Source: Chryseolinea sp. H1M3-3
Lineage (GTDB): Bacteria; Bacteroidota; Bacteroidia; Cytophagales; Cyclobacteriaceae
DNA: 64,000 nucleotides
Direction of reading: 5' to 3'
Assembly: GCF_029360725.1 (NCBI RefSeq)
Contig: NZ_JARKMY010000010.1
Span: forward strand, 186,001-250,000
Shown: piece by piece, positions 36,488-56,671 of the stretch
Numbering within the stretch: the first letter of the stretch is position 1
How the letters are laid out: each line of letters begins with the position of its first letter
Notes under the pieces: generated by a model
What the model saw: only the letters and a program-made list of their open reading frames with translations
What the model was told of the DNA's origin: nothing
Database searches by the model: none
Position numbers and translations under genes: made by a program

Positions 36488-37342
36488 TCACCCCCGCGTC
36501 AACTTAAACGCTATGGGCAGCACCATTTTCTGCAGTACCGGTTTTCCTTTCACCATGGCTGGTTTCCAGTTGTTCTTTGAGATCAACACATTCAACGCTT
36601 CCTCATCACAGCCTGCACCTATCCCTTTTACAATTTTTACATCCCGAAGATCTCCGGATTTGTCCACGATGAATTCAACATATACCTTTCCTTCAATTCC
36701 CATTCGCCTTGCCTTTTTCGGATACGTTAATTCTTCACCGATACCTTTATAAAGAACCTCCATTCCAGGCTTGTACTCAGCACCTTCCTGTACGACCAGG
36801 TAAATACTGTCGCCACTCACCTCATCTATGGTGAATGCAGCAATCAGAATCGAGTCCAGAATTTCAATATATTGTTCGCGTCCCGCCAGACCTTGCAATG
36901 TGTATCTACCCGTACCGTTAATAAGCATCGGATTTCCGGCCACATCCCAATGTTGATATAGTAAAGTTTTATCTTCAAGATGAAATTCTTCATCAGCAAT
37001 TTGTCCATTGTCGTAATACGCTTTCCATAACCCCACCTTCCGACCATTTACATACTCCCCTTCTTGCCTTAACTTACCATTCTCATAAAAGAAAATGAAC
37101 TGCCCTTCTTTTTTCCGGTTTATTCCTTCTCCTACAAAAGTTCCATCCATCTCAAGTTGATCATTGGAAGCATAGAATTGGCGAATCCGGTAGATACCAT
37201 CCCGCAGTTCCATTCTGCTATAATAATAAGCACCTTCCGGGGTTGGAAGTAACCGGCGTTCTTCATCAAAAAAATTCACAGTCTCCTGGGCAAAAACTGA
37301 AAACGACCATCCAACAAACAAAGCGACGAATAATGATCTCAT
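36488..37342 (-). CDS. MORN/YwqK-repeat and TonB C-terminal domain protein (copy 2)
   Basis: About 284 residues from the ATG at 37340-37342 (an in-frame ATG at 37360 would precede the signal peptide MRSLFVALFVGWSFSVFA-Q). It shares the order of the gene at 34039: YwqK-type repeats (FYENGKLRQEGEYV, YYDNGQIADEEFH), an internal acidic segment (EILDSILIAAFTIDE), then TonB_C (LTYPKKARRMGIEGKVYVE, split here for length) and the same end VKGKPVLQKMVLPIAFKL. The two are clear recent paralogues. Function is unknown; see the remnant at 59713. Confidence 0.8.
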   Translation of the reverse strand: MRSLFVALFVGWSFSVFAQETVNFFDEERRLLPTPEGAYYYSRMELRDGIYRIRQFYASNDQLEMDGTFVGEGINRKKEGQFIFFYENGKLRQEGEYVNGRKVGLWKAYYDNGQIADEEFHLEDKTLLYQHWDVAGNPMLINGTGRYTLQGLAGREQYIEILDSILIAAFTIDEVSGDSIYLVVQEGAEYKPGMEVLYKGIGEELTYPKKARRMGIEGKVYVEFIVDKSGDLRDVKIVKGIGAGCDEEALNVLISKNNWKPAMVKGKPVLQKMVLPIAFKLTRG

Positions 37343-37564
37343 GATATCTGTTAAAGTCAAAAATGATTTAGAGCAATATCCTCATAGATACGGAGGATCG
37401 GACGGTTAAAAATGACGGAAGAATGCGCACGTAAGAAAACGTGGATTTACTTCTGTAAACATTGGCTTCCATAGCGGCAGACATGATTTACCCCTTGACG
37501 GCACACCCACGCTTGAAACCTCCTGAATATTCTTCCGTTTAGACCAAATGAAAAACTCACCATC

Positions 37565-43581: not shown

Positions 43582-46500
43582 ATGAGATACCTATTACTTG
43601 CACTCATCGTTATCGTCACCACTTCAACAGTCTTCCCGCAAAAGAATGACTTTTATTCAAAACACTGGAGCAATGTCTATAAGCACGAGCTAAGAGAGCT
43701 ACCAAAATCTGCGCAGGCCGTTGTCGACTCGATCTATGTCAGAGCCAAGAAAGAAAAGAATACCCAAGAACTGATCAAGGCATTAATTTATCAATCCAAG
43801 TTTGCGGTTCACCTGCAGGAAAACGCAGAAATAAGCATTGTAAAAAAATTCAAAGAAGAAATTTCACAAAGTAAAGGACCGCTTAAAAATCTTCTGGAAT
43901 CAGTGCTGGCTAATATCTACTGGGAATACCTCAAGCAAAATCGCTATAAATATTATGGAAGATCGAGAACGTCAACAGTTGTAAATCAGCAGGATTTCAC
44001 GACATGGGATGCTAATGCCATGTTCAACGAAATTCATCAACGCTTTCAGAACTCGCTGAAAAATCGAAACTCGCTTCAGAATATCCAACTCGAATTCATC
44101 AATGAAATTCTGATCCAGGCAGATGATTCGAAAAAGTACAGGCCCACGTTGTACGATTTTCTTGTTCACAACGCGCTCGACTTCTACAGCACAAACGAAA
44201 GCACAATCATCAAACCTTCGAATGAGTTTAGGATTGACAATGACAAATATTTTTTCGATTTCGAAGAGCTTACAATTGAAAGTGCTGACAGCCTTTCCCC
44301 TTTGCGGCAGACCCTGCTTTTATATCAGGATCTGTTGGCGTTTCATAAACAGCGGCGCGACACGAACGCTTACGTGAACCTGGAAATTCAACGCCTCGCG
44401 TTCGTGGCTGGTCAAAATCATCTAGATAATTCCTCAGCATTACAGAAAGAAGCACTCACAAGGTTAAGAAACAACTTCCTGTCTCACCCGGCTTCCACGT
44501 TAGTTGCCTTTGAGCTTGCAGCATTGCTTAACAAAGACGGCAATGATTTTAACGCAAATAAAAATTCCGATCATCAATTCAAAAAAGCTGAAGCGATCGA
44601 TCTTTGTAATCAGGCCATTGCGGCCTTTCCGAACAGTGACGGTGCAGAAAAGTGTGTGGCACTCAGGGAACTCATCCTTCACCAACAGCTATCCATTACC
44701 GCAGAAAAATACATTCCCGTCAACACCCCAGCTTTTATTTCCATACGCTACGCGAATGTCGACAGTCTGCATTTTACTGTCTGCCGAATTACCAAAGAAC
44801 TTGAGGGTCGGCTGATGGGTGGTGGTCTCACTTTTTCACAAATCTCAGCATTGCCAACTGAAAAAAAATGGAGTGTTCAATTAAAAAACGTCAACGATTA
44901 CCAATTACATAGCACGGAGGTTGTGCTGCCGGGTCTGACCGTCGGAAGATATGTATTGCTGGCTACAACAAAGAACTTGAATGAGTATGACGAGCAGATC
45001 TTCGGTTATGCAACACTACAAGTAACAAATCTTTCCCTATTGGAATTTTCATCCAACGACCAACATCATTACCAGGTTCTCGATAGAAATAGTGGAAAGC
45101 CTCTTGAAGGGGCTAACATTCATCTTGAAAGGTTCAATACAAATTACGGTACGGCTATTGACGAATTTCTTACAACAGGGAAACATGGTGTCGCTATTCT
45201 TAAGCAAAGACCACATCTTTACGCTTACGCGGAGGCTACCGTGCGTTATGGCGGAGACGAGGCTACGTTTGGTGACTACTACATCAATGCACTTTATGAA
45301 AAAACACGTGAGGAAGAAGTTTATACAGCACGTTCTTTTTTATTCACAGACAGAAGTATCTACCGCCCGGGACAGATGGTCTTTTTCAAAGGTATTCTCA
45401 TCCAGACAAAAAACGGTAAAAGCTCCATTGTGCCAGGCGAGTATGTCACTGTTTACCTTGATGATGCAAATGCAAATGAAGTCGGCTCACTGCGCTTGAA
45501 GACCAACACATATGGCTCGTTCAGCGGTGAGTTTAAATTACCTGCTTCGGGACTGACTGGCGAATACGCTTTGTACGCGGAAGAAGATGATGAAGAGGAC
45601 AGCAAATTTTATGATAACCTCGAGGATTTTTATTATGATGAATTAACGATATCCGTGGAGGAATACAAGCGTCCTACCTTCGAAGCGACATTTAAGCCCG
45701 TTAAGGGAACGTTCATACTCAATGACACGGTCGTCATCAAAGGTACTGCAGAAGCGTTCAGTGGTGCGAAACTTTCTAAAGCACAAGTGAAGTACAAGGT
45801 AACGCGCAAAGTACGGTATCCCCGTTGGTACTACTGGTCATTTCGTGAAGATCATTCCAGCGCGGCGGAAATTTCACACGGGGAAACTTTAACTGACGAG
45901 CAGGGCGAATTCACCATCGCCTTTAAATCCATTCCCGATGACAAGGCATCCCCCAAAGATAAACCAGTGTTCATCTATGAAATCACGGCTGATGTAACGG
46001 ATATAAGCGGAGAAACCAGAAGCGCTACAGCTGAAGTTAAAGTTGGTTATCACGCCATCACAGCAACGATCACCGCTCCCGCACGGGTCGACTTATCAAA
46101 ACCGGAAAACGCCATCACGCTCACAACAGAAAATCTGAATGGTCAATTCGTCGGAGTTAGCGGCAAGGTCGAGATCTTCAAACTCAAGGAACCTGATGCA
46201 CCGGTACGCGCGCGGCCATGGGAGGCACCGGATCTTCCAATGTTAACGGAAGCGGAGTTTCGTGAACTGTTCCCGCACGATACATATTCAACCACTACCG
46301 AACCGAAGCACTGGCCAAGACAAAAGCTGATGGTGGAAATACCTTTTAATACCAGGATGTCACGAGAAATTAAATATCGTATTGGCGCGAATTGGCCGGC
46401 CGGCAATTACGTCATGGAGTTGACCGCCCTTGACTCATTGGGTCAAACTGTGAAAGATCTTTATCACTTCACTGTTACGAACGCAAAAAGCAAAGCGGTC

Positions 46501-49500
46501 GCTGACAATGCTTTGCTGGTATTTGAACTGGATAAACCCTCGTACAAGGTTGGTGAAGTGGCAAAGTTGAAAGTAGGATCCGCTTCACCGGATGTTACGT
46601 TTTTCATTCACATTGAGAGAGACCATAAGATCACAAAGACGTACACGGAAAAGCTCTCGGCTAGCACAACGGTGATTTCTATTCCTATAACAGAGGAGCA
46701 GGAAAACGGATTTTCAGTGAGTTGTCGGGGAGTGATGTACAACTCATTTGTATATAAAACCATTAACATTCCTGTGATCTCGCCTTCGAAAGCATTCGAA
46801 ATCGAAACGATTACTTTTAAAGATAAACTGCAGCCTGGAGCGAAAGAAACCTGGAGTTTCTCCATTAAGGGAGATGATGCAGGAACACAACAAGCGGAAG
46901 TCCTCGCATCGATGTACGACGCCTCTCTCGATCAGTTCAAGCCGCACCAATGGCAGTTTGAACCTGTTGTGGAAGAGCCGTATTTCGCTACTGTGATAAT
47001 TAACGGAAATCAAAGTTTTGGCGAAGCACATTTTACTATCAGGAATCTTGCTGGGCAACAACCCTTGGGAAGATTTCAGTACTACGACAAACTAGATTGG
47101 TTCGGATTTACACTTACGCGTAGCTCGTATGTGCAACGGGCTTATCTGAATAGACTGTACTCCACTGGCGCTGCCGCCGATACTCCTTCCAAGGTTATCA
47201 TGCGGAACAACAAGAATGCCAAGGACGGATTCATCTACGGGCAGATTATTGACAACGACGGCCAGCCCATGCCGGGCGTGAATATTATCATCAAAGGAAC
47301 AACCATCGGAACAACCACAGATATGGAGGGAAATTATGTGATAGAAGCCGATAAAGATGATGTACTGATCTATAGCTTCATTGGGTATGCAAGTGCAGAA
47401 ACACATGTGGGACGAAAAAATACAATAGACGTAATCATGGAACCCGACATCACGGAGCTGTCGGAGGTAGTAGTAACGGGCTATGGCGTTCAGACGAAAA
47501 AAATGGCATTGGGCGCGTCTGTTCATTATGTTGTTGCGGATAGTAGTGATAGTGATGTTGAATTTGACCAAGCGCTGGCCGGACGCGTTGCGGGCGTTCA
47601 GATAAAAAGCGATGGCGTGAATTATTTACTGAGGATTCGTGGCGCTAGTTCTTTGTCAGGTGCAGCGACACCGTTGTATGTAGTCGACGGGGTAATCGTT
47701 GAATCATCCCTTATTGACCAGACAGATCTTGCCGACGTTCAGTTGTTGAAAGGCGATGCAGCGGTATCTCTATACGGGGCGAAAGCAGCAAACGGTGCAA
47801 TCATCATCACAACGAAATCCGGCCAGAAGAAATTGGACGAAGCACTGGCGAAAGTTAATGCGCGGAAAAATTTCAATGAGACTGCCTTCTTCTTCCCGCA
47901 TCTGTCGACCAACGCTGACGGCGACATACGCTTTACATTTACAACCCCCGAATCGCTAACCCGCTGGAAACTACAACTGCTGGCGCACACCAAAAATCTG
48001 CTTACCACGACCAAGACATTACAGACTGTCACGCAAAAGCAATTGATGATTACACCAAATGTGCCGCGGTTCGTGAGGACGGGCGACCAGGTTATGTTTA
48101 CAGTCAAAATTACAAACCTCTCGGCAAAGATACTCGACGGCAAGATCGGTCTCCAGCTTACCAATGCTGTTACAGGTACCAATGTCGACGCAGTGTTCGG
48201 CAACGCCATACGCAACAAAACATTCAGGATAAATGCCCGCGAAAACACATCCGTGTCGTGGACATTGAAAGTCCCGGAAGGGGTAGACGCGCTGCAATAT
48301 AAAGTTGTCGCGAAAGCCGGAGCGTTCAGCGATGGCGAACAAAATGCACTGCCCATATTATCAAACCGCATGCTGGTAACGGAGACGATGCCATTATTCG
48401 TACGCTCGTCACAAACCAAAACATTTACACTTGAAAAACTCCGCGATTCCAAATCAACAACATTAAAGCATCATCAGCTTACACTTGAGGTAACATCCAA
48501 TCCCGCTTGGTATGCCGTGCAATCTCTGCCTTACCTCATGGAGTTTCCGCACGAATGCGCCGAACAAATGTTTTCGAGGTACTATGCTAACGCCATGGCT
48601 ACGCACATTATCAAAGCAAATCCAGTGATCTCTCCTGTATTTGAAAAGTGGTCGTCACTCGGAGAACTCGAAAGTAATCTGGATAAGAATCCTGAGTTGA
48701 AATCCATCATCATCGAAGATACGCCCTGGTTGCGTGACGCCCGCGGTGAAGCCGAGCAAAAGAAAAGATTGTCGCTGTTGTTTGACCTGAACACCATGCG
48801 TGATCAGCTCACGTCGGTGTTGAACAAAGTCGAGCAAATGCAATTTCCCGACGGCGGATTCCCCTGGTTTGCAGGAAGCCGTTATCCCAATCGCTACATC
48901 ACACAACATATTGCCTGCACGTACGGGCATCTTAAAAAACTCCAGGTAGCTGATTATGCAAATGAAAAGGAAATGATGACGAAGGCTGTGCGATACCTGG
49001 ATCATGAGTTTTTAAAAAACTATGGCCTGCTATTGAAGAACGCTGCGCAAGCAAACCCAGGTGTAAACGATCAGGATAAGAAACGAACTTCGAATGAATA
49101 TCTTTCAAAGCATCAGCCCAGCGATCATGATGTTCATTATCTCTACATGCGCAGTTTTTATAACGACATTCCCGCAGAAGGACAATTGAAGGAAGCGATC
49201 GACTATTATCAAAAACAGACAGCGAAATTCTGGCAGGATTATAATCTGTACGTTAAAGGAATGATTGCTCTCGTACATCATCGTGATGGAACCATTGCAG
49301 TAGCAAAGGCGATCCTTGCATCCCTCCGCGAAACAGCGATCACCAGCGACGAGCTAGGAATGTATTGGAAAGAAAATACGGGAGGTATGTACTGGAACCA
49401 GGCCGACATTGAAACCCAGTCGTTGCTGATAGAAGCCTTTGCGGAAATTGAACAAAATGACAGCACCAACACTACAACGCAAAAAACCATCGATGAACTA

Positions 49501-50247
49501 CGGTTGTGGCTGCTGAAGAACAAGCAGACCACACAATGGAAAACCACCAAAGCAACAACCGAGGCGATATATGCGCTACTGATGAATGGCACCAATTGGC
49601 TGACACTTGACGACGCAGTCGATGTAACTGTAGGGAAACAACACGTGCTCGCCGATGTAAAACAAAATCCCGAGGTGGCTACCGGCTATTTCAAAACATC
49701 GTGGCAAGGCGAAACCATTACACCCGACATGGCAACCGTCACCTTCACTAAGAAAGGCGAAGGCGTTGCCTGGGGCGGATTATACTGGCAATACTTCGAA
49801 GACCTGGACAAAATCACACCGGCAGAGACGCCGTTAAAACTCACAAAAAAAATCTTTGTTGTGACCAATACTGACCGCGGCGAATTGCTGACCGACATCA
49901 CTACCGTTGCCTTAAAAGGCGGCGACTTACTTCGCGTGCGCATTGAGCTGTCATCCGATCGGGCAATGGAATTTGTACACATGAAAGACATGCGTGCTGC
50001 CGGACTCGAACCTGTCGATGTACTCTCTGAGTACAAGTGGCAGGAAAACCTCGGTTACTACCAAAGCACCCGAGATGCAGCCACGCACTTCTTCTTTGAC
50101 TATCTACCGAAAGGCACCTACGTATTCGAATACGACCTCCGCGTAAACGTCAAAGGAAATTTCTCCAACGGCATCACTAGTATTCAAAACATGTATGCCC
50201 CGGAGTTTGGTAGTCACAGTGAGGGGGTGAGGATCGAAGTTAAGTAA
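43582..50247 (+). CDS. Alpha-2-macroglobulin family protein with inserted CarboxypepD_reg and TonB-receptor plug
   Basis: The 2221-residue exported protein has a signal peptide (MRYLLLALIVIVTTSTVFP-Q). MG domains follow, including the MG2 signature TDRSIYRPGQMVFFKG and EEYKRPTFEATF. At residues about 1216-1415 is an insert: CarboxypepD_reg-like (GQPMPGVNIIIKGTTIGTTT) and a SusC-type plug with VVVTGYG at 1296-1302 and YVVDGVIVE, without any beta-barrel. The A2M/MG7 domain starts near 1430 (NETAFFFPHLST, SLTRWKLQLLAHT). The thioester motif is C-A-E-Q (Cys1659 in FPHECAEQMF), then an alpha-helical thioester domain and receptor-binding-like C-terminus. Bacterial A2Ms trap proteases in the periplasm. 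The insert lies where the bait segment precedes MG7 in animal A2M. No penicillin-binding protein 1C partner is adjacent. Confidence 0.9.
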   Translation: MRYLLLALIVIVTTSTVFPQKNDFYSKHWSNVYKHELRELPKSAQAVVDSIYVRAKKEKNTQELIKALIYQSKFAVHLQENAEISIVKKFKEEISQSKGPLKNLLESVLANIYWEYLKQNRYKYYGRSRTSTVVNQQDFTTWDANAMFNEIHQRFQNSLKNRNSLQNIQLEFINEILIQADDSKKYRPTLYDFLVHNALDFYSTNESTIIKPSNEFRIDNDKYFFDFEELTIESADSLSPLRQTLLLYQDLLAFHKQRRDTNAYVNLEIQRLAFVAGQNHLDNSSALQKEALTRLRNNFLSHPASTLVAFELAALLNKDGNDFNANKNSDHQFKKAEAIDLCNQAIAAFPNSDGAEKCVALRELILHQQLSITAEKYIPVNTPAFISIRYANVDSLHFTVCRITKELEGRLMGGGLTFSQISALPTEKKWSVQLKNVNDYQLHSTEVVLPGLTVGRYVLLATTKNLNEYDEQIFGYATLQVTNLSLLEFSSNDQHHYQVLDRNSGKPLEGANIHLERFNTNYGTAIDEFLTTGKHGVAILKQRPHLYAYAEATVRYGGDEATFGDYYINALYEKTREEEVYTARSFLFTDRSIYRPGQMVFFKGILIQTKNGKSSIVPGEYVTVYLDDANANEVGSLRLKTNTYGSFSGEFKLPASGLTGEYALYAEEDDEEDSKFYDNLEDFYYDELTISVEEYKRPTFEATFKPVKGTFILNDTVVIKGTAEAFSGAKLSKAQVKYKVTRKVRYPRWYYWSFREDHSSAAEISHGETLTDEQGEFTIAFKSIPDDKASPKDKPVFIYEITADVTDISGETRSATAEVKVGYHAITATITAPARVDLSKPENAITLTTENLNGQFVGVSGKVEIFKLKEPDAPVRARPWEAPDLPMLTEAEFRELFPHDTYSTTTEPKHWPRQKLMVEIPFNTRMSREIKYRIGANWPAGNYVMELTALDSLGQTVKDLYHFTVTNAKSKAVADNALLVFELDKPSYKVGEVAKLKVGSASPDVTFFIHIERDHKITKTYTEKLSASTTVISIPITEEQENGFSVSCRGVMYNSFVYKTINIPVISPSKAFEIETITFKDKLQPGAKETWSFSIKGDDAGTQQAEVLASMYDASLDQFKPHQWQFEPVVEEPYFATVIINGNQSFGEAHFTIRNLAGQQPLGRFQYYDKLDWFGFTLTRSSYVQRAYLNRLYSTGAAADTPSKVIMRNNKNAKDGFIYGQIIDNDGQPMPGVNIIIKGTTIGTTTDMEGNYVIEADKDDVLIYSFIGYASAETHVGRKNTIDVIMEPDITELSEVVVTGYGVQTKKMALGASVHYVVADSSDSDVEFDQALAGRVAGVQIKSDGVNYLLRIRGASSLSGAATPLYVVDGVIVESSLIDQTDLADVQLLKGDAAVSLYGAKAANGAIIITTKSGQKKLDEALAKVNARKNFNETAFFFPHLSTNADGDIRFTFTTPESLTRWKLQLLAHTKNLLTTTKTLQTVTQKQLMITPNVPRFVRTGDQVMFTVKITNLSAKILDGKIGLQLTNAVTGTNVDAVFGNAIRNKTFRINARENTSVSWTLKVPEGVDALQYKVVAKAGAFSDGEQNALPILSNRMLVTETMPLFVRSSQTKTFTLEKLRDSKSTTLKHHQLTLEVTSNPAWYAVQSLPYLMEFPHECAEQMFSRYYANAMATHIIKANPVISPVFEKWSSLGELESNLDKNPELKSIIIEDTPWLRDARGEAEQKKRLSLLFDLNTMRDQLTSVLNKVEQMQFPDGGFPWFAGSRYPNRYITQHIACTYGHLKKLQVADYANEKEMMTKAVRYLDHEFLKNYGLLLKNAAQANPGVNDQDKKRTSNEYLSKHQPSDHDVHYLYMRSFYNDIPAEGQLKEAIDYYQKQTAKFWQDYNLYVKGMIALVHHRDGTIAVAKAILASLRETAITSDELGMYWKENTGGMYWNQADIETQSLLIEAFAEIEQNDSTNTTTQKTIDELRLWLLKNKQTTQWKTTKATTEAIYALLMNGTNWLTLDDAVDVTVGKQHVLADVKQNPEVATGYFKTSWQGETITPDMATVTFTKKGEGVAWGGLYWQYFEDLDKITPAETPLKLTKKIFVVTNTDRGELLTDITTVALKGGDLLRVRIELSSDRAMEFVHMKDMRAAGLEPVDVLSEYKWQENLGYYQSTRDAATHFFFDYLPKGTYVFEYDLRVNVKGNFSNGITSIQNMYAPEFGSHSEGVRIEVK

Positions 50248-55942: not shown

Positions 55943-56671
55943 CTAAAACAAACTCTTAATTTTCAACCACCACGTCCGCGGATGATACCACCTCATTGCA
56001 TAACATCCACCGACAACAATCTTTTCGTTTAACGCTTCCTGGTCCATCAACATCTCGACATACACTGGCTGTCCCATCACTACCGTCGAAACTGGTACCT
56101 CTACATCTTTAAACCCAATAAAGGAAAAACTAATGACAGCAGACGGTCCTGGATTTGTCAACGTGATCGAAAACTTTCCATCACCATCAGTTACCGTACC
56201 CTTGTTTGTACCCTTAAGGATCACATTAACACCTGGCATTGACATGCCTTCTTCCGGTGACGTCACGATACCCTTGATCTCCAATATCGATGGAACGCTG
56301 ATAACACTTTCGGTGCTGTCGGCCTGATCATGTCTTTCGGTTGGATGATGGGCAAAATCATGTCGCTGTTGCCCGAGAGTTTGGCGGGCAGAAAACAATA
56401 ACAGACCACTTGCAAAGAAAACCGGCAACCAACCATACGGCTTTTTTGAATCGTCGAACGTATATACTTTAAGTTGATCCTGCCGGAAGCGACCACAAGT
56501 ATTTCCCGTCACGTTTTTGAAATACGATTTAATGCGTTCGTCACTCCACGATGTAAAATCAATGACTTCCTTTTGGCACGACGAGCAGAACCTACCATTG
56601 GAGGTTTTGGCAAACGATCCCCATTTTTCATGACAGGGCTTTGGGATAGCGATCTCGATATTCTTTTTCAT
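55943..56671 (-). CDS. CxxC N-terminal, single-TM, CarboxypepD_reg-like protein (copy 2)
   Basis: The 242-residue paralogue of 32581-33306 has IPKPCHEKWGSF, FCSSCQKEVIDFT and CGRFRQDQLKVYT, then a transmembrane helix (about 79-95) and CarboxypepD_reg-like domain (ITLTNPGPSAVISFSFIGF). It shares the cysteine module and one membrane helix with copies 1 and 3. No receptor or protease follows directly. It is separated from copy 3 (58461) by the M50-TPR gene, and both are on the minus strand. Confidence 0.75.
   Translation of the reverse strand: MKKNIEIAIPKPCHEKWGSFAKTSNGRFCSSCQKEVIDFTSWSDERIKSYFKNVTGNTCGRFRQDQLKVYTFDDSKKPYGWLPVFFASGLLLFSARQTLGQQRHDFAHHPTERHDQADSTESVISVPSILEIKGIVTSPEEGMSMPGVNVILKGTNKGTVTDGDGKFSITLTNPGPSAVISFSFIGFKDVEVPVSTVVMGQPVYVEMLMDQEALNEKIVVGGCYAMRWYHPRTWWLKIKSLF

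What the first reader, a model, noticed from the sequence alone, without database searches (positions are those of the whole stretch)
43582..50247. Alpha-2-macroglobulin with a TonB-receptor plug in the bait position
Residues about 1216-1415 of this 2221-residue A2M are a CarboxypepD_reg-like domain plus a SusC-type plug (VVVTGYG, YVVDGVIVE). The plug ends about 15 residues before the MG7/A2M start (NETAFFFPHLST), which is where the bait region lies in animal A2M. A plug normally fills an outer-membrane barrel and contacts TonB; no barrel is present. The C-A-E-Q thioester (Cys1659) is intact. Inferred: the plug could serve as bait, could dock on TonB-dependent receptors or SusD, or could couple trapping of a protease to transport.
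Basis: partly seen in the sequence, partly recalled or inferred. Interest (0 to 1): 0.75.

Follow-up and report, generated by a model that had tools for sequence, protein, structure and literature searches.

The report
Protease trap baited with transporter pieces
A bacterial protein of the family that traps proteases carries, in its bait loop, a piece that looks like the cell's own nutrient-import receptors, and related bacteria keep swapping such pieces in and out, which suggests that the trap lures proteases by imitating what they attack.

Summary
Confirmed. Window 43582-50247 (+) is one open frame of 2221 aa: an alpha-2-macroglobulin (A2M) with a CAEQ thioester motif. Between its bait-region domain and its A2M domain it holds the soluble N-terminus of a SusC-type TonB receptor (NTE, Ton box, plug) without a barrel. 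It is no one-off. In 108 bait segments, the window's included, the stretch ranges from NTE+plug to 61-119-aa loops. Of 48 such loops 26 hold a Ton-box match and 13 an IRG match; same-length control segments hold 0 of 48. Motif order is reversed in 15 baits. Sister proteins with 92-95% identical cores carry different baits. Two baits clearly match receptors of their own genome, one outside the window's class carries another receptor type, and a few carry pieces of the gliding lipoprotein GldJ. The window's own plug is NOT especially close to its genome's receptors. Best reading: a fast-exchanged decoy bait made from periplasm-facing parts of envelope proteins, luring proteases into the thioester trap. 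The decoy step is inferred; neutral filler and docking on TonB are rivals.

The parts
43582..50247 (+). A2M gene, 2221 aa, signal peptide without a lipobox at its start
   Evidence: signal peptide read from sequence, not predicted by a tool
45334..45609 (+). MG2 domain, residues 585-676
   Evidence: PF01835, E 4e-18
46522..46929 (+). A2M bait-region domain, residues 981-1116
   Evidence: PF07703, E 6e-6, 27.1 bits over cut-off 22.7
47110..47862 (+). Bait-position segment, residues 1177-1427, from after KLDWFGF to before RKNFNETAFF
   Evidence: anchors; segment used
47233..47475 (+). SusC N-terminal extension (CarboxypepD_reg-like), residues 1218-1298
   Evidence: PF13715, E 1e-21
47461..47481 (+). 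Ton box SEVVVTG, residues 1294-1300 (SusC Bt1763 Ton box is DEVVVTG, PMC7782687)
47488..47829 (+). SusC-type plug, residues about 1303-1416, no barrel after it
   Evidence: TIGR04056; SusC chains in PDB; Plug 32.1 bits on the segment
47725..47817 (+). SusC/RagA signature, residues 1382-1412
   Evidence: TIGR04057, 38.8 bits, below cut-off 46.2
47881..48144 (+). A2M domain, residues 1434-1521
   Evidence: PF00207, E 6e-16
48556..48567 (+). Thioester motif C-A-E-Q, residues 1659-1662
   Evidence: sequence
49837..50205 (+). bMG10 domain, residues 2086-2208
   Evidence: PF17973, E 3e-33

Best explanation
A thioester A2M whose bait is a decoy cassette. Shown: the bait position holds the N-terminal module of a TonB receptor (NTE, Ton box, plug), the part that faces the periplasm in SusC; among the Bacteroidota relatives examined this cassette is present, absent, permuted or replaced much more variably than the scaffold, and it resembles TonB receptors and, in a few, a loop of GldJ. 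Inferred: the protein is exported to the periplasm; a protease that attacks exposed Ton box or plug chains of working receptors cuts the look-alike bait, which releases the A2M conformational change, exposes the thioester and traps the protease. The bait thus samples what a periplasmic protease would damage. Copying by recombination from the cell's own receptor genes is likely in some lineages and not seen in the window's own gene.
For: Bait position by domain order. Ton box match in 26 of 48 short baits, IRG in 13, GRVAGV in 6, against 0 of 48 control segments for each; Ton box in 36 of 40 long baits. 65 of 106 baits match the SusC family at E <= 0.1 and 3 match GldJ (best 6e-6), in a library of 18950 families. 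L105, outside the window's class, carries the Ton box/plug start of a different receptor type. L016 bait: own-genome SusC 61%, E 4e-45, far above the A2M plug of L017 (46%, E 7e-15) although the two cores are 95% identical. L113 bait: own SusC-size frames 57 and 60%, no match in 5 other genomes. L017 bait is SusC-GldJ-SusC; 70 bases match gldJ DNA, 73% in its own genome and 77% in that of L016. Bait state needs 39 changes on the core tree; bait less conserved than the upstream 170 aa in 71 of 72 close pairs; dS of the bait departs from its flanks in L053/L055 and L010/L034, so it was probably exchanged; dN/dS 0.12-0.57 in 12 chosen pairs says it is not free of constraint. Published: proteolytic cleavage of the SusC plug was seen in an earlier crystal structure, which the authors explain by ejected plugs (PMC7782687, passages); cleavage of a disordered bait activates E. 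coli A2M (PMC4498604, passages).
Against: No protease, cleavage or localisation was tested. The window's plug is nearest to other A2M plugs (53, 49, 47%), and its own SusCs (best 46%) are no closer than foreign ones (47%). Of 8 bait queries only L016 and L113 gave a clear own-genome receptor match; L017 and L105 were marginal; the L042 piece and L086 gave no donor in their own genome; L065 gave only a weak GldJ match; the window none that stands out. 22 of 48 short baits lack a Ton-box match. NTE and a folded plug are not obviously good protease bait. In L010/L034 the bait is more conserved than the core (94 against 88%). Baits of kin are not independent, so the counts overstate the number of events.
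Confidence: 0.45

Rival explanations
1. Neutral, insertion-tolerant loop. The bait accepts any in-frame piece, and SusC genes are simply the commonest donors by copy number.
For: 37 frames of 994-1208 aa in the own genome match the insert at 34-46%, and Pfam Plug has 75 matches there; high turnover; a GldJ piece shows that other donors occur; dN/dS of the bait is above that of the core in 12 of 12 chosen pairs.
Against: A Ton box match is in 26 of 48 short baits while the VDG and YG..ANG motifs, also strong in SusC, are in 0 of 48 (the VDG matrix found 5 of 48 control segments, so it is not blind); dN/dS 0.12-0.57, always below 1; a different receptor type in L105; GldJ, with one match in each of the 5 genomes, appears in 3-4 baits.
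Confidence: 0.27
2. TonB docking. The Ton box in the bait binds the TonB C-terminal domain, which holds the A2M near the energised envelope machinery or pulls the bait open.
For: The Ton box is the only run of majority residues over 106 aligned baits (LxEVVVxxxG); it is like the tested Ton box of SusC; a TonB_C protein is coded 6.2 kb upstream in the window.
Against: GldJ pieces and the IRG and GRVAGV motifs have no known role in TonB binding; 22 of 48 short baits have no Ton box match; order and context vary.
Confidence: 0.15
3. Spare plug or receptor docking. The folded plug enters or caps SusC barrels and couples trapping to transport.
For: 30 of 108 baits, the window's among them, score as NTE plus late plug.
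Against: Close relatives with the same scaffold have only loops of 61-119 aa, some with permuted motifs; none of the 8 neighbours scanned is SusD-like.
Confidence: 0.06
4. Released signal. Cleavage frees the NTE-plug as a messenger, as complement C3 frees its anaphylatoxin from the same place.
For: Domains in place of the bait are known in animal thioester proteins: anaphylatoxin, LDLa in MCR (PMC7016707, passages).
Against: No receptor known; the cassette is absent in many relatives.
Confidence: 0.05

Closest known systems
Bacterial type I A2M (E. coli YfhM/ECAM, Salmonella SaA2M)
   Same: MG2, bait-region domain, A2M domain, CxEQ thioester, MG10 domain; bait between the same two domains
   Different: No lipobox; bait of about 60-270 aa with TonB-receptor pieces, where cleaved E. 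coli A2M lacks density for 20 bait residues; no pbpC among the 8 neighbours scanned
SusC/RagA TonB-dependent transporters
   Same: NTE, Ton box and plug, 34-46% identical to 37 SusC-size frames of the own genome
   Different: No beta barrel (profile 4-220 of 981)
Animal thioester proteins with a domain or alternative exons at the bait (C3 anaphylatoxin, MCR LDLa, Drosophila TEP2, BgTEP2)
   Same: A foreign domain or a varied stretch at the bait position; variety may widen the range of proteases (PMC7016707, passages)
   Different: There the variety comes from alternative splicing; here the stretch resembles unrelated envelope proteins and seems exchanged in frame
Anopheles TEP1
   Same: Chimera by gene conversion (PMC2576239, abstract)
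   Different: Donors are other TEP genes, not receptor genes
935-aa protein L095 of the same genome (NTE, weak MG2 match, plug, short tail)
   Same: Plug in a protein with an MG2-like part; tail aligns weakly to the A2M-domain start (hhalign E 0.013, probability 3%)
   Different: No A2M or thioester domain found

Membership tests
Thioester A2M | MG2, PF07703 and PF00207 in order | tested here: met
Thioester A2M | CxEQ thioester motif | tested here: met
   CAEQ at 1659
Thioester A2M | Bait between PF07703 and PF00207 cut by proteases, with trapping | not testable with these tools
   position met; cleavage needs an experiment
Type I bacterial A2M (YfhM) | Lipoprotein signal peptide | tested here: not met
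   pattern search of the first 90 residues: none in the window protein; among relatives one hit, L030, too far in to be a signal peptide's (about ten relatives are fragments or cut frames whose true start is missing)
Type I bacterial A2M (YfhM) | pbpC neighbour | tested here: not met
   not among the 8 neighbours scanned; beside the other A2M of the genome, L090, a neighbour was named PbpC-like by reading its sequence only
SusC/RagA TonB-dependent transporter | NTE, Ton box, plug | tested here: met
SusC/RagA TonB-dependent transporter | Barrel | tested here: not met
   TIGR04056 match stops at profile position 220 of 981, 206.9 bits against cut-off 368

The most novel reading that the evidence does not exclude
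Bacteroidota A2Ms renew their bait by recombination with the cell's own envelope genes, chiefly SusC-type receptors and at times gldJ, so that the trap always offers a current likeness of the cell's most exposed protease targets: a self-templated decoy, comparable in logic to variable bait exons of invertebrate thioester proteins.
Probability: 0.35. Interest if true: 0.9.

Novelty: new variant of a known kind. Interest (0 to 1): 0.74.

Why it matters
How an A2M bait gets its sequence is an open question. Here the bait records, in readable form, which proteins it resembles, so bait specificity can be tested directly with peptides, swaps and proteases. It would also point to the Ton box and plug as protease targets in living Bacteroidota, show a bacterial route to bait diversity, and warn that plug and CarboxypepD_reg annotations in long Bacteroidota proteins need not mean transport.

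Tried and rejected
Profile comparison with the canonical A2M L090 aligned only the domain before the bait, and the global pairwise alignment is poor; the position rests on Pfam order and on the YfhM alignment of L090. A source for the WNPKN stretch in the L042 bait was sought in four genomes and not found. A plain motif count by patterns written by eye was replaced by position matrices made from 27 own-genome SusCs. The idea that the window's plug was copied recently from a SusC of its own genome was tested and rejected. A shared neighbour: a divergent MurC/Mpl-like ligase, in 62 of 77 relatives and not among the window's scanned neighbours. Literature for a prior report (listings only, save the papers named) gave none; the library holds open-licence papers only, and 'susc' matched other words, so it says little. 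A search for isolated plug domains found no paper.

Dropped rows: of 114 proteins 6 had no end anchor (fragments L078_0 and L080_0, and L118, L120, L124, L125) and are in no bait count; by eye L124 holds a full NTE-plug, L125 an NTE-like part, L118 and L120 no plug motif. L098 repeats L037 and L123 repeats L121; both are left out but are. Searches also leave out L045, a cut frame. Sequences are related, so counts are not independent events. The 12 dN/dS pairs were chosen by me; short baits give only 58-78 codons each.
Full report
WHAT IS THERE. Window 43582-50247 (+) codes for one uninterrupted protein of 2221 aa. Pfam finds MG2 (585-676), the A2M bait-region domain PF07703 (981-1116), CarbopepD_reg_2 (1218-1298), A2M PF00207 (1434-1521) and bMG10 (2086-2208). 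NCBIfam finds the SusC family TIGR04056 at 1219-1432, profile positions 4-220 of 981, E 6e-61, and the SusC signature at 1382-1412, both below their whole-protein cut-offs. Solved SusC structures match 1217-1421 (8aa4, E 8.5e-28). The thioester motif CAEQ is at 1659. The own genome (6.9 Mb, 19 contigs) has one full-length copy; of 62 matches, 37 are frames of 994-1208 aa that match the insert at 34-46%.

POSITION. In the canonical A2M of the same genome (L090, CVEQ, 1878 aa) PF07703 ends at 1148 and PF00207 begins at 1217. L090 aligns with E. coli YfhM through this interval (E 5e-23); in cleaved E. coli A2M the bait residues Arg923-Leu942 lack density (PMC4498604, passages). In the window protein the same interval is 1117-1433 and holds the NTE, Ton box and plug. 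I could not confirm this with a model.

RELATIVES. A scan of genome contigs gave 346 confirmed relatives, of which the best 80 were kept. A sample of 148 genomes over the phylum found the class in 26. I extracted 108 bait segments, the window's included (6 proteins dropped). They form a series: NTE plus late plug (30), NTE without late plug (21), late plug without NTE (6), Ton box without these (28), none of these (23). Position matrices made from 27 SusCs of the own genome gave, at p <= 0.01 against 300 shuffles of each bait: 40 long baits - NTE 39, Ton box 36, GRVAGV 24, IRG 29, VDG 29, YG..ANG 30; 18 middle baits - 12, 12, 10, 5, 5, 5; 50 short baits - 2, 27, 8, 15, 1, 0. After removing a repeat and a cut frame, 48 short baits gave NTE 2, Ton box 26, GRVAGV 6, IRG 13, VDG 0, YG..ANG 0; control segments of equal length from the same proteins, downstream of the bait, gave 0, 0, 0, 0, 5, 0. 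The canonical bait of L090 has no such match. Where Ton box and IRG or GRVAGV occur together, 57 pairs keep the SusC order and 16, in 15 baits, are reversed. Of the short baits with both, 12 of 12 are reversed (L121/L123 as one), 7 of them in one clade of 14 rows. Reversed order is not what a simple trimming of a plug would give. Over 106 aligned baits the only run of majority residues is LxEVVVxxxG, the Ton box: DEVVVTG in SusC Bt1763 (PMC7782687, passages).

DONORS. Of 106 baits, 65 match the SusC family, 43 BamP (in the window's bait at the NTE), 36 the SusC signature and 3 GldJ (best 6e-6), at E <= 0.1, in a library of 18950 families of which 57 matched any bait. Pfam gives CarbopepD_reg_2 in 52, Plug in 34. 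L105, outside the window's class, has the Ton box and plug start of a different receptor type (SLDEVIVVSERPLIEKSS...LPVRGG); it matches receptor-size frames in its own genome (best 49%, E 1e-6) and in four other genomes outside the window's class (best 38%, E 6e-7), and none in nine genomes of the window's class, the own one included. L017 is a chimera: SusC start, then 31 residues 61% identical to a GldJ loop, then SusC end; the GldJ protein was confirmed by TIGR03524 (938 bits). In a shuffle test of 108 baits against GldJ, L017 and L065 reached p 0.0025 (the floor), L086 0.005, L019 0.0075 and L110 0.04; with 108 tests the last ones are leads only. GldJ is an outer-membrane-anchored lipoprotein of the gliding track (PMC12635249, passages).

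OWN-GENOME LIKENESS. Eight baits or bait pieces were searched. Clear: L016 (own SusC 61%, E 4e-45; next best 3e-30) and L113 (two own frames, 57 and 60%, sharing the unusual Ton box DEVTVYG; no match in five other genomes). Marginal: L017 (own SusC 61%, a Lacinutrix SusC 59%) and L105 (own 49%, E 1e-6; a foreign receptor 38%, E 6e-7). GldJ only, weak: L065 (own genome E 0.002). No donor in the own genome: the L042 piece and L086, which met GldJ only in another genome, E 0.009. Against: the window's plug, whose nearest matches are A2M plugs of G118 (53%), L031 (47%) and L009 (49%), with own SusC (best 46%) no closer than a foreign SusC (47%).

TEMPO. On a tree of 106 cores the five bait states need 39 changes (shuffled mean 60.8, least 4); NTE alone 23, late plug alone 18 (a quick tree with long branches, so the counts are rough, and they cannot tell gain from loss). 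In 72 pairs with cores at least 85% identical the median identity is 89% core, 82% upstream, 55% bait; the bait is lower than upstream in 71; lengths differ by 40 aa or more in 16 (pairs overlap, L045 left out). L016/L017: core 95%, bait 56%; L028/L042: core 92%, baits of 225 and 89 aa; L011/L041 share the plug's second half but differ after the Ton box; L010/L034 go the other way, bait 94%, core 88%. In 12 chosen pairs dN/dS of the bait is 0.12-0.57 against 0.03-0.14 for the core; dS of the bait is 0.54 against 0.06 upstream and 0.16 core in L053/L055, and 0.21 against 0.57 and 0.68 in L010/L034, which points to exchange of the segment.

HOW IT PROBABLY WORKS. No lipobox was found, so I infer a soluble periplasmic protein. 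A plug outside its barrel is exposed; cleavage of the SusC plug was seen in a crystal structure (PMC7782687, passages). A bait that resembles Ton boxes and plugs would be cut by whatever protease attacks working receptors; the A2M then closes and its thioester binds the protease, as in E. coli. That motif pieces recur in changed order, that GldJ pieces occur, and that the receptor type differs between lineages fit a decoy of peptides better than a folded docking domain. The Ton box is the most persistent part, so binding of TonB cannot be excluded, and a tolerant loop fed by the commonest gene family is the main sober rival; the bias towards the Ton box and dN/dS below 1 speak against pure neutrality.

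NOVELTY. Domains or varied exons at the bait are known in animals (PMC7016707, passages). My searches listed no report of TonB-receptor pieces in bacterial baits, within an open-licence library. I rate it a new variant of a known kind.

Noticed in passing
window 36488-37360 (-): Protein with a MORN repeat and a TonB C-terminal domain (PF03544, E 1.5e-19), 6.2 kb before the A2M gene; of interest for the TonB-docking rival.
   Followed up: partly
L095 (G000:C2 near 923154): 935-aa protein of the same genome: NTE, weak MG2 match, plug, then a tail that may be the start of an A2M domain; no thioester domain found.
   Followed up: partly
L042, L047, L068, L078: Two A2M genes in tandem; in L042 and L068 one has a full plug and the other a short bait, in L047 the other has an NTE without late plug; L078 holds only part of the first.
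   Followed up: no
L171:17292-18665 (-) and flanks of 62 loci: A MurC/Mpl-like ligase (below both family cut-offs) lies upstream on the other strand in 62 of 77 relatives with flanks, and not among the window's scanned neighbours.
   Followed up: partly
L103, L108, L109, L112: Baits with an NTE-like domain in which I see no SusC Ton box by eye.
   Followed up: no
L030, L042, L100 baits: A recurrent stretch like W(S/N/A)PKN of unknown source; no donor found in the four genomes searched.
   Followed up: partly
window 55943-56671 (-): Small protein with a CarboxypepD_reg-like domain, 5.7 kb after the A2M gene.
   Followed up: no
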